Of a DNA stretch of 64,000 bases, positions 22,737-27,551 are shown piece after piece. The stretch is from contig JAESII010000007.1 in assembly GCA_016756725.1 (NCBI GenBank), positions 148,985 to 212,984 of the forward strand. The letters are read 5' to 3'. A program made the translations under genes and the position numbers. A model generated the notes under the pieces. It did no database searches. It was not told the origin of the DNA and worked only from the letters and a program-made list of their open reading frames with translations. Origin of the DNA: Synergistaceae bacterium (GTDB lineage Bacteria; Synergistota; Synergistia; Synergistales; Aminithiophilaceae). Within the stretch, counting starts at the first letter, position 1. The number at the start of each line of letters is the position of its first letter.

Positions 22737-22765
22737 TTGACATCGTTTTCGAGAAAAGCTATCCT
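22737..22765 (+). promoter_or_regulatory. Sigma70-type promoter of the activase/double-cubane operon
   Basis: TTGACA (22737-22742), exactly 17 nt, TATCCT (22760-22765). The expected transcription start, near 22772, is immediately before the inverted repeat at 22774. Confidence 0.75.
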
Positions 22766-22773
22766 TCCTGATA

Positions 22774-22797
22774 ATAATCGATAGCTATTTCGATTAT
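22774..22797. promoter_or_regulatory. 24-bp inverted repeat, probable operator
   Basis: ATAATCGA and TCGATTAT are perfect 8-bp arms around TAGCTATT, itself nearly symmetric. The repeat covers about +2 to +25 of the predicted transcript and ends just before the AAGGGGAG ribosome binding site. The position suits a repressor that blocks initiation. No candidate regulator is adjacent. Confidence 0.65.
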
Positions 22798-22808
22798 AAG
22801 GGGAGTGA

Positions 22809-23576
22809 ATGGCGATCGTTTCTCAAGTCATCGGCATTGATATCGGCTCCGTCGGGGCCAAGGGCGTTCTTTTCGACGGCTCCATTGCGGCCAGCGCCAT
22901 CGTTCCTACGGGGTGGGACATGAAAGAGACGTCCCGGTCCCTTCTGTCTTCCCTTGCGGGGGGTAAAGATGTGACGGCTCTTCCCCTCGTCGCCACAGGA
23001 TACGGCCGTAACGCCGTCGAAGGGGCAAGGAGGACGATGACGGAGATCACCTGCCATGCCAGAGGCGTTCGCTTCCTTCACGGAGAGGCCAGGACGGTTC
23101 TTGACATCGGCGGACAGGACAGCAAGGTCATCGGACTGGACCGGTCGGGGAAAGTGGTTGATTTCGCCATGAATGACCGCTGTGCCGCCGGGACGGGGCG
23201 TTTTCTTCAAATGATGGCTCATCGTCTTGATTACAGCCTTGACGACGTGAAGGCCCTGAGCTGTGACGGTGAGGTGCAGCCTCTGACGAGCATGTGCGCC
23301 GTCTTCGCCGAGACGGAAGTGGTGGCCCATATTGCCCGCGGCGTGCCCCGGGAAGCGCTGCTTCGTGGAATCCTGCGAGCCATCGCAGCCCGCGCAGCGG
23401 CGATGGTGACAAAAACGGGCCTGACAGAGCCTCTCTTCTTCTCGGGGGGACTCTCGCGCATCGGCAGCCTGGCAACGCTGATCGGCCGCGAGCTGAAAAC
23501 GGAGGTCGCCGTCCACGGCCGGTCGCCCCTGGCGGGAGCTATCGGTGCAGCCCTGATCGCCTGGGAGGAGCGCTGA
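22809..23576 (+). CDS. ATP-dependent activase of the BadF/BadG/HgdC family (double-cubane protein reductase type)
   Basis: A 255-residue ASKHA-fold ATPase with phosphate loop GIDIGSVGAKG (residues 9-19), VLDIGGQDSK and FSGGLSR. Cys125 (NDRCAAGTGRF) and Cys163 (SMCAVFAETEV) match the two Cys that each subunit gives to the dimer-bridging [4Fe-4S] cluster in HgdC. In the family, ATP hydrolysis drives one electron at very low potential onto a partner dehydratase or double-cubane protein. ATG 22809 follows AAGGGGAG. The partner starts 1 nt past its stop. An electron donor (ferredoxin or flavodoxin) is not encoded nearby. Confidence 0.93.
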   Translation: MAIVSQVIGIDIGSVGAKGVLFDGSIAASAIVPTGWDMKETSRSLLSSLAGGKDVTALPLVATGYGRNAVEGARRTMTEITCHARGVRFLHGEARTVLDIGGQDSKVIGLDRSGKVVDFAMNDRCAAGTGRFLQMMAHRLDYSLDDVKALSCDGEVQPLTSMCAVFAETEVVAHIARGVPREALLRGILRAIAARAAAMVTKTGLTEPLFFSGGLSRIGSLATLIGRELKTEVAVHGRSPLAGAIGAALIAWEER

Positions 23577-23577
23577 G

Positions 23578-24711
23578 ATGGGTCCCATAGCGGCGATCGT
23601 CGATGAGGTGCGGCGCCATCGCGACGACGGAATCCTGCAGATCAAGGAGGCTCATGAGAAGGGCATTCCCATCGTCGGCACCTACTGCGGCTACATGCCC
23701 TGGGAGATCATCGACGCCGCCGGGGCCATCGCCGTGAGCCTCTGTGCCAAAAGCGACGAGGCCATTCCCGCCGCAGAGGAACATCTCCCCCGCAACCTCT
23801 GCCCCCTCGTGAAGTCCAGCTACGGCCACGCCTTGAGAGGAAGCTGTCCCTATTTTCATTTTTGCGACCTCATCGTGGCCGAGACCACCTGCGACGGCAA
23901 GAAGAAGATGTACGAGCTCCTGGACCGGATCAAGCCCGTCCACCTCGTCCAAATTCCCCAGAGACAGGACAGGCCGGAAGATCTTGCACTGATGAAGTCC
24001 GAATTCAACCGCGTCTGCCGCCGCCTTGAGACTCTGACGGGCAGGCCCGTCACGGACGAGGCTTTGGCCGCCTCGGTGGCCCTCCGCAACCGTGAGCGCC
24101 GCGGCCTCAGGGCCCTCTGGGATCTATCGCGCCGGGATAATCCCCCCCTCACAGGATGGGAGGTCCAGGAGATCACCGACTACATCCAGTATCACTTTGA
24201 CAAGAAACAGGCCCTCGTCTGGCTCGAAGGGGTGACGGAGACCCTGAGGCAGACCGAACCGGAAAGGGATCTTTCCGCGAAGCCCCGCGTTCTCGTCACG
24301 GGATGCCCCATCGGCGGCGTCATGAAGACCCTCAAGACCCTCGAAGAATCCGGTGCCCTCGTGGTATGCTTCGAGAACTGCGGCGGCCAGAAGGAACCGC
24401 TGAAAGCCGTCGACGAAGCAAAGGACGTCATGGGGGCCCTGGCGGAGAAATACCTGACCATCGGCTGTTCCGTGATGAGTCCCAATCCCCACCGGATGGA
24501 AGCCCTGGAGAGACTGATCGACGAATACGATGTGGACGGCGTCGTCGAGATCGTCCTGACGGCCTGTCATACCTACGCCATCGAAAGCCACTCCATCCGC
24601 GAACGGGTCCAATCTCTGGGCAAGCGCTATCTCGCCGTCGGGACGGACTACTCTCCCGGCGACAGAGAACAGCTGGCAACACGAATGGGCGCTTTTGTCG
24701 AAATGCTCTGA
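23578..24711 (+). CDS. Double-cubane-cluster-type protein (2-hydroxyacyl-CoA dehydratase D / HgdB family, single subunit)
   Basis: A 377-residue protein of the HgdB/BcrB fold. Twelve Cys are visible, including Cys37 (GTYCGYMPWE), 56, 75 (NLCPLVKSSYG), 90 and 96 (GSCPYFHFCD), 105 (ETTCDGKKK), 243 (TGCPIGG), 264 and 268 (CFENCGG), 297 (GCSVMSPN) and 330 (TACHTY). True dehydratases have two such subunits encoded in tandem. Here there is one, paired with an activase, as in E. coli YjiM/YjiL and the Carboxydothermus double-cubane cluster protein that carries an [Fe8S9] cluster and reduces small molecules. That assignment is by analogy. The natural substrate is unknown, and the transporter downstream may give a hint. 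Confidence 0.85.
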   Translation: MGPIAAIVDEVRRHRDDGILQIKEAHEKGIPIVGTYCGYMPWEIIDAAGAIAVSLCAKSDEAIPAAEEHLPRNLCPLVKSSYGHALRGSCPYFHFCDLIVAETTCDGKKKMYELLDRIKPVHLVQIPQRQDRPEDLALMKSEFNRVCRRLETLTGRPVTDEALAASVALRNRERRGLRALWDLSRRDNPPLTGWEVQEITDYIQYHFDKKQALVWLEGVTETLRQTEPERDLSAKPRVLVTGCPIGGVMKTLKTLEESGALVVCFENCGGQKEPLKAVDEAKDVMGALAEKYLTIGCSVMSPNPHRMEALERLIDEYDVDGVVEIVLTACHTYAIESHSIRERVQSLGKRYLAVGTDYSPGDREQLATRMGAFVEML

Positions 24712-24760
24712 TCGGGGCATGGAATGCCTCACTCAATTGAACGAGAAAGGAAGAGAGAAC

Positions 24761-25744
24761 ATGATGAAGAGACTGGCGGCAACAGCAGCTTTTCTGGTTT
24801 TGGCGGCGACGATGGCCTTCGCTGAGACCCAACCGAGCGGCAAGGGCATGAAGGTCTGGTTCGACGGAGGCGGTTCCGTCGGTGAACCTTACACGACGAT
24901 CGTCGTGAACGGTGCCAGGCAGGCGGCCACGGACCTCGGCGTCGAACTGACCATCGTCTACTCCGATTGGAACGCCGAGAAAATGCTGGAAAACTTCAAG
25001 AACGGCCTGGCCGCGGAGCCTACCGGTTTCGTCGTCATGGGACACCCAGGCGACGATGCCTTCGAACCCCTCATCGACGAGGCTTTTTCGAAGGGCATGA
25101 TCGTCACTGCTGTCGACACGGAACTGCCACGGCTTCAGGCGAAATATCAGTCCCGCGGTTTCGGCTACATCGGCCCCGACGGATGGAAACAGGGCGAGGA
25201 TATGGCCAAAGAGATCCTGCGGCGCCGTGATTTCAAGAAAGGAGACAAGGCCTTCGTCTGGGGCCTCAAGCGCCTCGAGAGCCGCGGCCGTCGGGCCCGG
25301 GCCATCCTCCAGGTCTTCGAGGAGGCGGGACTCAAGGTGGATTACCTGGAGATCTCCGACGAGATCAACCGCGACGTCTCTCTCGGTGCACCGGTTCTCA
25401 CGGGCTATCTGGCCGCCAATCCCGACTGCAAGGTCATCGTCGTCGATCATGGCGCCCTGACGGGTCAGATGGAGAACTTCCTCCGCGCCGCCGGACTGAA
25501 GCCGGGCGAGATCTACGCCACAGGCTTCAGCCTCAATCCCGCCACGGCGGCTTCCATCGAGAGCGGCTACCTGAACCTCGTCTCCGAGGCACAGCCCTAC
25601 CTGATGGGCTACCTCAGCGTCGTCCAGATCGTCCAGACGGCCAAATACGGCTTCGGCGGCCTCGTCGTCGACACCGGCGGCGGCTACGTCTCGCAAGAGA
25701 ACATCGCTGCCGTGGCCCCTCTGGCGAAAGAAGGCATCCGCTGA
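24761..25744 (+). CDS. Periplasmic sugar-type substrate-binding protein of an ABC transporter
   Basis: ATG 24761 (MMKRLAATAAFLVLAATMAFAETQ), behind GAAAGGAAGAGAG, gives a clear cleavable signal peptide and ~327 residues. The track start (24695) overlaps the previous gene. The mature part is a LacI/RbsB-type periplasmic binding fold: TTIVVNGARQAATDLGVELTIVYSDWNAEKMLENFKNGLA, VVMGHPGDDAFEPLIDEA, then IYATGFSLNPATAASIESGYLNLVSEAQPYLMGY. It lies 49 bp after the double-cubane gene and before a terminator and the matching ATPase and permease. Ligand unknown; family ligands include pentoses, hexoses, inositol and autoinducers. Confidence 0.88.
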   Translation: MMKRLAATAAFLVLAATMAFAETQPSGKGMKVWFDGGGSVGEPYTTIVVNGARQAATDLGVELTIVYSDWNAEKMLENFKNGLAAEPTGFVVMGHPGDDAFEPLIDEAFSKGMIVTAVDTELPRLQAKYQSRGFGYIGPDGWKQGEDMAKEILRRRDFKKGDKAFVWGLKRLESRGRRARAILQVFEEAGLKVDYLEISDEINRDVSLGAPVLTGYLAANPDCKVIVVDHGALTGQMENFLRAAGLKPGEIYATGFSLNPATAASIESGYLNLVSEAQPYLMGYLSVVQIVQTAKYGFGGLVVDTGGGYVSQENIAAVAPLAKEGIR

Positions 25745-25776
25745 AGCTCCCCTATCACTGAAAATGCAATATACTC

Positions 25777-25807
25777 GGTGCGGGGGAACCTACCCCGCAC
25801 CTTTTTT
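25777..25807 (+). terminator. Intrinsic terminator inside the transporter operon
   Basis: Stem GGTGCGGGG/CCCCGCACC with a 7-nt loop followed directly by TTTTTT (25802-25807), between the binding-protein gene and the ATPase gene. It probably lowers ATPase and permease levels relative to the binding protein. Confidence 0.85.
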
Positions 25808-25830
25808 GTGATCATCACAGGAGGATGAGG

Positions 25831-26586
25831 ATGGAACCAGCGGTGACGATGAGAGGCATCACAAAATCCTTCGGCCCCATCCACGCCCTGAGAGGCGTCG
25901 ATCTCGACCTGCAGGCGGGCGAGGTGCTGGCGCTGCTCGGTGATAACGGGGCCGGTAAATCGACGCTGGTCAAGATCCTTTCGGGCCTTCACGTCCCCGA
26001 TTCGGGGACGATGACTCTGGACGGCAAACCCGTCGACTGGAGACGGTACGATGTGGCCCGGGCCCGCGATATGGGCGTCGAGACGGTCTATCAGGAGCGC
26101 TCCCTCGGCGAGAAGCAACCCCTCTGGCGTAACGTCTTCGTCGGCCGCCACCTGAGAAACCGCCTGGGTCTGATCGACGTCAGGCGGGAGAAAGTGGAGA
26201 CGATGAAGCTTCTTGCCGACGTGATCGGCTTCCGCGGCGTCGGCCTCCACCCCGAGGCCCGCGTCGCGAGCCTTTCCGGAGGAGAGCGGCAGGGACTGGC
26301 CATCGCCCGGGCCATGTACTTCGACGCGGCCATCATCGTCCTCGACGAGCCGACGACGGCCCTGGGCGTGACGGAGGCCGAGAAGGTCCTCTCCTTCGTC
26401 GAGAGGCTCCGAACCGAGGGGCACAGCTGCCTCTTCGTCAGTCACGAAATGCACCACGTCCACCGCATCGCCGACCGCTTCGCCCTCATGGAACGGGGCC
26501 GCATCGCGACAATCCTCAAAAAAAGCGAGATCAGCCTCAAGGACCTGGCAGAAAAACTTCTGCTCGGCGAGGAGGACAGACCATGA
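25831..26586 (+). CDS. Sugar-type ABC transporter ATPase (single nucleotide-binding domain)
   Basis: 251 residues from ATG 25831, which lies 6 nt after AGGAGG; ATG 25825 in the track abuts that ribosome binding site and is less likely. Walker A GDNGAGKS, signature LSGGERQGLAIARAM, Walker B IIVLDEP, switch VSHEMHH. Unlike RbsA, which has two fused ATPase domains, this is a single domain as in the FrcA type, and would dimerise with the permease. Translation of the permease is coupled by ATGA overlap. Confidence 0.92.
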   Translation: MEPAVTMRGITKSFGPIHALRGVDLDLQAGEVLALLGDNGAGKSTLVKILSGLHVPDSGTMTLDGKPVDWRRYDVARARDMGVETVYQERSLGEKQPLWRNVFVGRHLRNRLGLIDVRREKVETMKLLADVIGFRGVGLHPEARVASLSGGERQGLAIARAMYFDAAIIVLDEPTTALGVTEAEKVLSFVERLRTEGHSCLFVSHEMHHVHRIADRFALMERGRIATILKKSEISLKDLAEKLLLGEEDRP

Positions 26587-27551
26587 TCGGCTTTTTCAAC
26601 TGCTACCGGAGGCAGGTACTGGTGACTCTTGCCCTGACGGCGCTCTGGGCCGTCTTCACCCTGGCCTCGCCGGCAGCCTTCACGGGCATCCGCATCTACC
26701 GCTCCTTCATGTCGACCATCCCGGTGACGCTCATCCTCACCTTGGGGATGACCCTTCTCGTCATCCTGGGCGAGATGGATCTGAGCTTCCCCTCCGTCTC
26801 GGCTGCGGCGGCCTTCGTCTTCGCCTCCCTCTACGCCAAGGCCGGCTGGCCGCCGGCGGCGGCCATGGCCCTGGCTCTCGCCTCGGGCGCAGCCATGGGG
26901 CTTTTCAACGGCTTTCTCGTCGTCAAGGTGGGCGTGCCCTCCATCATCGCCACCATCGGCACCCAGTTCTTCTGGCGGGGACTGATCCTCCTCGCCGCCG
27001 ACGGACTGGCCATCGCCCTCTCGGCCATCCGCGGCCACTGGATTCACAGCCTCTTCGTGGGCCGCCTCGGTCTCTGGGAGCTCCCGGCTCAGGCCCTCTG
27101 GGGGCTGTCCGTGGCCGTTGTGCTGGGCCTTCTTCTGAACCGGCACCCCTTCGGCGATGCCATCCTCTTCATCGGCGACAACCGCAAGACGGCCGAGATG
27201 ATGGGAATCTCCGTCGACCGGGTCCGCCTGGCCACCTTCACTCTCATGGGGTTTCTCGCCGCCTTCGCCGGCCTTCTGGCCACGCTGGAGCTGAACAACT
27301 GGTGGCCCACCCAGGGAGAGGGCTACATGCTCCTCGTCTTCGCCGCCGTCTTCGTCGGAGGCACCTCGGCCTACGGAGGCCAGGGAACGATTTACGGCTC
27401 CTTCGTCGGCGCCATCCTGATCGGCATCATCGAGGCGGGCATCGTCAGCGCCGGACTCGTCGGCTTCTGGACCCGCTTCATCCACGGCCTGGTGATCATC
27501 CTATCCGTCTCGGCCTATGCCGGAATGGCCCGGTGGCGGCCCCACGGATGA
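26583..27551 (+). CDS. Sugar-type ABC transporter permease (RbsC/FrcC family)
   Basis: A 322-residue polytopic protein with VTLILTLGMTLLVILGEMDLSFPSVSAAAAFV (the GxxDLS motif of RbsC-type permeases), GLFNGFLVVKVGVPSIIATIGTQFFWRGL, GDNRKTAEMMGISVDRVRLATFTLMGFLAAFAGLLA and FVGGTSAYGGQGTIYGSFVGA. It overlaps the ATPase stop and is the last gene of the operon. No terminator is obvious after it; degraded sequence follows. Confidence 0.93.
   Translation: MIGFFNCYRRQVLVTLALTALWAVFTLASPAAFTGIRIYRSFMSTIPVTLILTLGMTLLVILGEMDLSFPSVSAAAAFVFASLYAKAGWPPAAAMALALASGAAMGLFNGFLVVKVGVPSIIATIGTQFFWRGLILLAADGLAIALSAIRGHWIHSLFVGRLGLWELPAQALWGLSVAVVLGLLLNRHPFGDAILFIGDNRKTAEMMGISVDRVRLATFTLMGFLAAFAGLLATLELNNWWPTQGEGYMLLVFAAVFVGGTSAYGGQGTIYGSFVGAILIGIIEAGIVSAGLVGFWTRFIHGLVIILSVSAYAGMARWRPHG

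What the first reader, a model, noticed from the sequence alone, without database searches (positions are those of the whole stretch)
22737..27551. Double-cubane-type Fe-S protein and activase in one operon with a sugar-type ABC importer
Seen: promoter, 24-bp inverted repeat, HgdC-type activase (Cys125, Cys163), a single HgdB-type protein with twelve Cys, then a complete RbsB/ATPase/RbsC-type transporter on the same strand. Known: single HgdB-like proteins with an activase (E. coli YjiM/YjiL; Carboxydothermus DCCP) carry an [Fe8S9] double-cubane cluster and can reduce small molecules at very low potential, but their natural substrate is unknown. Inference: the transporter imports the substrate or a precursor, making this a candidate pathway for ATP-driven reduction of an imported compound.
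Basis: partly seen in the sequence, partly recalled or inferred. Interest (0 to 1): 0.85.

Follow-up and report, generated by a model that had tools for sequence, protein, structure and literature searches.

The report
Double-cubane reductase with dedicated sugar-type importer
An anaerobic bacterium carries, in one gene row, an ATP-driven iron-sulfur reductase of unknown natural substrate together with a sugar-type importer, and because unrelated lineages paired the same importer with different versions of this reductase several times, the importer is a good handle for finding what these widespread enzymes really reduce.

Summary
Window 22809-27551 encodes an HgdC-type activase (Cys125/Cys163), a double-cubane cluster protein (DCCP; NF040772, 467 bits against a cut-off of 350; all six cluster cysteines kept; model matches 6ENO), and a sugar-type importer (binding protein, single-domain ATPase, permease), same strand, with promoter-like sites of that strand only before the activase. 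The pairing is not chance. Orthologues of the binding protein occur in 20 of 188 Synergistota genomes, next to a DCCP in 14, and in 3 of 3 Aeromonas that have it. The linked DCCPs are not one clade (AU p = 5e-5; at least four places in the tree) and gene order differs, so the link arose or was reshuffled repeatedly. Relatives of the importer sit with GalK, GalE, L-arabinose isomerase, GalM or a GH4 alpha-galactosidase: a galactose/arabinose-type transporter. DCCP linkage goes with an Asp-to-Ser change in its binding site. In Aeromonas a Se/S-carrier gene (PF11823) lies between activase and importer, as ytiA follows yjiML in E. coli. Best reading: the importer brings in the DCCP's substrate or its precursor, perhaps a galactose-type glycoside. 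Substrate and reaction remain unknown; the importer is separate in 6 of 20 genomes.

The parts
22737..22765 (+). sigma-70-like promoter TTGACA-N17-TATCCT
   Evidence: 10 of 12 matches. TTGAC-type sites with TATTCT, TATCCT or TATACT lie at the corresponding place in L032, L112, L113 and in L133, L134, L136 (sequences printed)
22774..22797 (.). 24-bp palindrome ATAATCGA-N8-TCGATTAT, possible operator between promoter and start codon
   Evidence: only exact copy in the genome; not conserved in congeners
22809..23576 (+). HgdC/YjiL-type activase (DCCP reductase), ASKHA ATPase with bridging-cluster Cys125 and Cys163
   Evidence: TIGR00241 225 bits against cut-off 125; PF01869; PDB 4EHT and 7YYL_E; Cys positions
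23578..24711 (+). double-cubane cluster protein (DCCP); predicted ligands Cys37, 75, 105, 268, 297, 330
   Evidence: NF040772 467 bits against 350; 6ENO/7YYL E=2e-59; six Cys in at least 99% of 145 homologues and in BzdN; AlphaFold pLDDT 91.6, Foldseek top hits 7YZM, 6ENO, TM 0.91
24761..25744 (+). CUT2-type periplasmic sugar/polyol binding protein, Ser257 subclade (GFS instead of GFD)
   Evidence: PF13407; nearest NCBIfam model is the rhizopine SBP, far below cut-off; fold hits 4RU1, 2H3H; pocket columns
25777..25801 (+). terminator-like hairpin GGTGCGGGG-N7-CCCCGCACC-T6 between binding protein and ATPase
   Evidence: hairpins of different sequence at the same place in most relatives
25825..26586 (+). 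single-domain ABC ATPase of CUT2 type
   Evidence: PF00005; AlsA/YtfR/AraG-like N-terminal half
26583..27551 (+). RbsC-type permease
   Evidence: PF02653; GguB/YjfF/RbsC-like

Best explanation
The five genes form one unit for import and ATP-driven low-potential reduction of a small molecule. The importer brings in a galactose/arabinose-type sugar derivative or galactoside. The activase hydrolyses ATP to push single electrons onto the [8Fe-9S] cluster of the DCCP. The DCCP then reduces the imported compound, or a part released from it, inside the cell. Shown here: gene identities, intact cluster ligands, fold, recurrent linkage, sugar-type binding protein. Inferred: co-transcription, ligand class, and that the imported compound feeds the DCCP. 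Unknown: the exact compound and the bond reduced.
For: Curated family, fold and ligand tests for the DCCP. Linkage in 14 of the 20 Synergistota genomes with the orthologous binding protein, which are cleanly separated from other binding proteins (at least 53% identity, then a gap to 28%). Three main gene orders: ACT-DCCP-SBP-ATP-PERM; SBP-ATP-PERM-DCCP-ACT (L150, L171); DCCP-ACT-PF11823-SBP-ATP-PERM-GH4 in three Aeromonas. Linked DCCPs are not one clade: AU p=4.8e-5 overall, 1.7e-4 within Synergistota; at least 5 label changes forced by well-supported branches. Ser257 goes with DCCP linkage: DCCP is adjacent in 17 of 24 members of the Ser257 group and in none of 9 Asp257 relatives. Sugar ligand class: AraA, GalE, GalK, GalM, GH4 neighbours of relatives and sugar-binding fold hits. 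More generally, non-redundant DCCPs have a same-strand ABC ATPase within 2.5 kb in 29% of cases, against 11% at control places and 3% on the opposite strand, and these importers are of unrelated classes.
Against: The importer stands apart from DCCP in 6 of 20 Synergistota genomes, and one of these (G109, listed 100% complete) has no DCCP match. Two genomes with a window-clade DCCP (G114, G116) have no such binding protein. A galactose-type sugar has no obvious group that needs an [8Fe-9S] reductase. No sugar-processing enzyme lies in the window row, and GH4 is absent from the binding-protein-positive Synergistota. The comparison with Bacillota rests partly on short contigs.
Confidence: 0.5

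Rival explanations
1. Fuel model: the importer brings in an ordinary fermentable sugar (galactose, L-arabinose or a galactoside) whose breakdown supplies ATP and electrons; the DCCP reduces something else, such as a toxic or nitrogen- or sulfur-containing small molecule, under the same anaerobic control.
For: Relatives of the importer sit in plain galactose/arabinose catabolic clusters with no DCCP (L250, L246). In Photobacterium the importer is with GH4 and no DCCP was found within about 12 kb. The importer occurs without any DCCP in G109.
Against: The DCCP-linked importers have a changed ligand site (Ser257) compared with the catabolic ones. The same subclade was paired with different DCCP lineages repeatedly, more than expected if any sugar importer would do.
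Confidence: 0.25
2. Sulfur/selenium model: DCCPs act on S- or Se-containing compounds, releasing reduced sulfur or selenium to a carrier protein; here the importer brings in an S- or Se-containing galactose-type sugar.
For: PF11823 (Se/S carrier) lies between activase and binding protein in Aeromonas, follows yjiM-yjiL as ytiA in E. coli and is within 3 kb on the same strand in 12 of 64 DCCP clusters. A TusA/DsrE protein lies beside a DCCP in L163. DCCP genes are named among neighbours of methyl-selenide gene clusters (PMC10418091).
Against: No Se/S carrier at the window locus; the one in the window genome lies on another contig. PF11823 function is itself only putative. No direct evidence for an S or Se sugar.
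Confidence: 0.12
3. Neighbourhood without shared pathway: anaerobic genes drifting into one transcription unit, conserved by descent and lateral transfer.
For: Linkage is lost in several genomes and most members of one family share one ancestral arrangement.
Against: At least four separate placements on the DCCP tree with different gene orders, in two phyla.
Confidence: 0.13

Closest known systems
Carboxydothermus hydrogenoformans DCCP/DCCP-R (PDB 6ENO, 7YYL)
   Same: Single HgdB-type protein with six cluster Cys plus a separate activase; fold TM-score 0.91
   Different: About 30% identity; falls in another branch of the DCCP tree. Natural substrate unknown.
E. coli YjiM/YjiL(/YtiA)
   Same: Same NCBIfam equivalog and activase partner; the Aeromonas loci with this importer have a YjiM-type DCCP and a YtiA-type Se/S carrier
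   Different: E. coli locus has no ABC importer; YjiK/YjiJ neighbours instead
Class I benzoyl-CoA reductase BzdN and 2-hydroxyacyl-CoA dehydratases
   Same: Same fold and cluster-binding Cys framework; activase-driven (PMC11971306)
   Different: They are heterodimers acting on CoA esters; the window protein is a lone subunit and scores far below their curated cut-offs
CUT2 sugar/polyol ABC importers (glucose binder 2H3H, 4RU1, RbsABC; rhizopine SBP model)
   Same: Fold, domain set and overall sequence family
   Different: Single-domain ATPase; the Asp of the GFD motif is Ser; below every curated model of known ligand
Bacillota galactose/arabinose-type clusters (L250, L246)
   Same: 44-48% identical binding proteins with cognate ATPase and permease
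   Different: GFD rather than GFS site, no DCCP nearby, MtaA-like UroD proteins instead

Membership tests
Double-cubane cluster protein (DCCP) | Scores above the curated cut-off of NF040772 | tested here: met
   467 bits against 350
Double-cubane cluster protein (DCCP) | Six cysteine ligands of the [8Fe-9S] cluster | tested here: met
   Cys37, 75, 105, 268, 297, 330 align with 6ENO and BzdN cysteines and are in at least 99% of homologues. Ligand identity is inferred from that shared set; the DCCP papers themselves were not held.
Double-cubane cluster protein (DCCP) | DCCP fold | tested here: met
   AlphaFold model, Foldseek rank 1-5 all DCCP entries, TM 0.91
Double-cubane cluster protein (DCCP) | Partner activase with two cluster Cys | tested here: met
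   TIGR00241; Cys125, Cys163
Double-cubane cluster protein (DCCP) | Homodimer with assembled [8Fe-9S] cluster and ATP-dependent reduction of small molecules | not testable with these tools
   needs purified protein
2-hydroxyacyl-CoA dehydratase / class I benzoyl-CoA reductase | Two different D-component subunits acting on CoA esters | tested here: not met
   single PF06050 gene in the whole (83% complete) genome; far below family cut-offs
CUT2 sugar ABC importer | PF13407 binding protein, ABC ATPase and PF02653 permease | tested here: met
CUT2 sugar ABC importer | ATPase with two fused nucleotide-binding domains (RbsA type) | tested here: not met
   253 aa, one ABC_tran domain; single-domain versions of this class are known (own knowledge)
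Galactose/arabinose importer | Binds galactose or L-arabinose | not testable with these tools
   only neighbour genes of relatives point there
Operon | Co-transcription of all five genes | tested here: inconclusive
   Same strand, gaps of at most 80 nt or overlap, no internal promoter-like site on that strand, but a hairpin with T6 between genes 3 and 4

The most novel reading that the evidence does not exclude
DCCPs form a family of substrate-specific anaerobic reductases, each supplied by its own importer. This version takes up a sulfur- or selenium-bearing galactose-type sugar (for example a thio- or selenosugar) and reductively releases sulfide or selenide to a Se/S carrier, giving the first natural role for a stand-alone double-cubane protein.
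Probability: 0.08. Interest if true: 0.92.

Novelty: new variant of a known kind. Interest (0 to 1): 0.64.

Why it matters
DCCPs reduce acetylene, hydrazine or azide in vitro, but their biological role is called unknown in a 2025 paper (PMC11971306), although YjiM is in 5,350 of 5,426 complete E. coli genomes. A binding protein that evolution has repeatedly tied to DCCPs can be purified easily and screened for ligands, which makes the natural-substrate question directly testable.

Tried and rejected
Operator regulon: the palindrome has no other exact copy in the genome and is not conserved in congeners; dropped. GH4 as a general part of the pathway: absent from all binding-protein-positive Synergistota. 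Filing the binding protein as a rhizopine transporter: best NCBIfam hit but 68 bits against a cut-off of 420. Single-origin explanation for the linkage: rejected by AU tests. Literature searches for a known DCCP-transporter link found none in the held open-access set; the primary DCCP papers were not held. My first gene caller failed on high-GC loci and was replaced.

Full report
WHAT IS THERE. The window lies on contig C11 of an 83% complete, 2.3-Mb genome. The nearest named relative of the locus is a Synergistales MAG (L032, 82% identical DCCP). Five intact genes follow each other on the + strand: activase 22809-23576, DCCP 23578-24711, binding protein 24761-25744, single-domain ABC ATPase 25825-26586, permease 26583-27551. 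The only promoter-like sites on this strand are upstream of the activase. A palindrome (22774-22797) sits between promoter and start codon. A hairpin followed by T6 separates the binding-protein and ATPase genes. Hairpins of quite different sequence are present at that place in most relatives, which suggests differential expression of the binding protein within a longer transcript rather than the end of the unit. That is inference.

IT IS A DCCP. NF040772 (double_cubane, equivalog) scores 467 against a cut-off of 350, while the CoA-ester enzymes of the superfamily score far below theirs. phmmer gives 6ENO/7YYL at E=2e-59. Of twelve cysteines, six (37, 75, 105, 268, 297, 330) align with cysteines of both the Carboxydothermus DCCP and BzdN and are kept in at least 99% of 145 homologues. 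PMC11971306 states that six irons of the BzdN double cubane are held by cysteines and that the DCCP surrounding is related. The AlphaFold model (pLDDT 91.6) matches DCCP entries first, TM 0.91. The activase has the two cluster cysteines at 125 and 163.

THE LINK WITH THE IMPORTER IS REAL AND RECURRENT. In 188 Synergistota genomes, NF040772 matches in 93. The binding protein has 20 clear orthologues (53-100% identity; the next best hit is 28%). Reading their neighbourhoods: 14 lie next to a DCCP, 6 do not. Gene order differs: ACT-DCCP-SBP-ATP-PERM in the window's genus and in two other families (L122; L133, L134, L136, L139, L199, L200), DCCP-SBP-ATP-PERM-DCCP-ACT in L137, and SBP-ATP-PERM-DCCP-ACT in L150 and L171. 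Outside the phylum, 3 of 75 genomes of the family of Aeromonas finlandensis have the binding protein, and all three show DCCP-ACT-85aa-SBP-ATP-PERM-GH4. On trees of 144 and 47 DCCPs the linked ones fall in at least four places (window clade; the second DCCP of L137 with L036; L150/L171; Aeromonas inside the enterobacterial YjiM clade). Five label changes are forced by well-supported branches, and a single clade is rejected (AU p=4.8e-5; within Synergistota 1.7e-4). The trees are FastTree and quick IQ-TREE searches, not exhaustive.

A WIDER PATTERN. Collapsing DCCP loci at 80% identity, a same-strand ABC ATPase lies within 2.5 kb in 16.4 of 56 groups, against 6.9 of 60 at control places and 1.8 of 56 on the opposite strand (Fisher p=0.016, approximate since fractions were used). 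Pfam shows these importers are of unrelated classes: PBP_like_2, NMT1-like, ABC_sub_bind, DUF3798, SBP_bac_3. The sample was fetched by similarity to the window protein, so it is not an unbiased census. It fits the view that DCCPs work on diverse imported compounds, each with its own importer.

WHAT MIGHT BE IMPORTED. The binding protein is a CUT2 sugar/polyol fold but passes no curated ligand model. Its Bacillota relatives (44-48% identity) sit with L-arabinose isomerase, GalE and GalK (L250) or GalM (L246), above curated cut-offs. The Aeromonas and Photobacterium versions sit with a GH4 alpha-galactosidase (541 bits against 486 for the Aeromonas one). One Synergistota version (L195) is near a GalT-like gene that scores below the cut-offs and lies on the other strand. 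So a galactose/arabinose-type ligand or galactoside is likely. The canonical Asp of the GFD motif is Ser257 in every Synergistota, Aeromonas and Photobacterium member read, while it is Asp in all nine Bacillota/Microvirga relatives and in the solved structures compared. DCCP is adjacent in 17 of 24 of the first group and none of the second, though several Bacillota contigs are short. This suggests that the DCCP-linked importers carry a derivative rather than the plain sugar.

A HINT TO CHEMISTRY. The 85-residue gene between activase and binding protein in Aeromonas is PF11823, Putative Se/S carrier (39.9 bits, cut-off 25). It is annotated as ytiA after yjiM-yjiL in E. coli, and lies on the same strand within 3 kb of DCCP in 12 of 64 DCCP groups, including Brachyspira and one Synergistota branch. 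A TusA/DsrE-like protein is beside a DCCP in L163. UroD/MtaA-like methyltransferase relatives appear both with DCCPs (L033, beside a RACo-like activator) and with the Bacillota importers. DCCPs are listed among neighbours of methyl-selenide gene clusters (PMC10418091). Together these point to sulfur or selenium chemistry for part of the family. The window locus itself has no carrier gene, and the genome's single PF11823 copy is on contig C10. I therefore keep this as a low-probability, high-interest reading.

VERDICT. Observation confirmed. The interpretation that the importer feeds the DCCP is the best explanation (0.5), strengthened by recurrence but not proven. The fuel model and simple neighbourhood remain possible. 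The kind of enzyme and the kind of importer are each known; their repeated pairing, with a pocket change, is to my knowledge and within the literature held here not described.

Noticed in passing
L032:7232 / L114:6213 (genome G023) and L112:11402: The activase gene of congeners has no ATG/GTG/TTG at the aligned start: in G023 an in-frame TGA directly precedes ATA, and the first usual start codon is the fifteenth codon, inside the nucleotide-binding motif. A non-canonical (ATA) start is possible.
   Followed up: partly
L137:1453-7412 (genome G042): Two different DCCPs (60% and 48% identical to the window's) flank one importer, with a single activase at the end: DCCP-SBP-ATP-PERM-DCCP-ACT. The second DCCP belongs to another clade.
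   Followed up: partly
L080:9923-10177; L251:6407-6664 (ytiA); L144, L163, L170 and others: PF11823 Se/S-carrier genes adjoin DCCP/activase genes in the enterobacterial loci, Aeromonas, Brachyspira and one Synergistota branch.
   Followed up: partly
L163:6049-12423 (genome G061): A row with NMT1-type binding protein, ABC-type gene, DCCP, TusA/DsrE protein, activase, and a second DCCP.
   Followed up: no
L044:7959-14103 (Tissierella praeacuta): DCCP followed by a DUF3798 protein (possible binding protein), an ABC ATPase and a PF02653 permease: another importer class beside a DCCP.
   Followed up: no
L148:5940-11265 and L037: DCCP-activase preceded by an ABC importer with a PBP_like_2 binding protein in Synergistota.
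   Followed up: no
window 25777-25801 and same place in L032, L112, L122, L133, L136, L137, L192: Strong GC hairpin between binding-protein and ATPase genes kept despite sequence change; likely partial terminator or mRNA stabiliser.
   Followed up: partly
L250:5682-7879, L220:110-1207, L221:12607-13857: UroD/MtaA-like proteins of unknown role sit inside arabinose/galactose-type transporter clusters of Bacillota.
   Followed up: no
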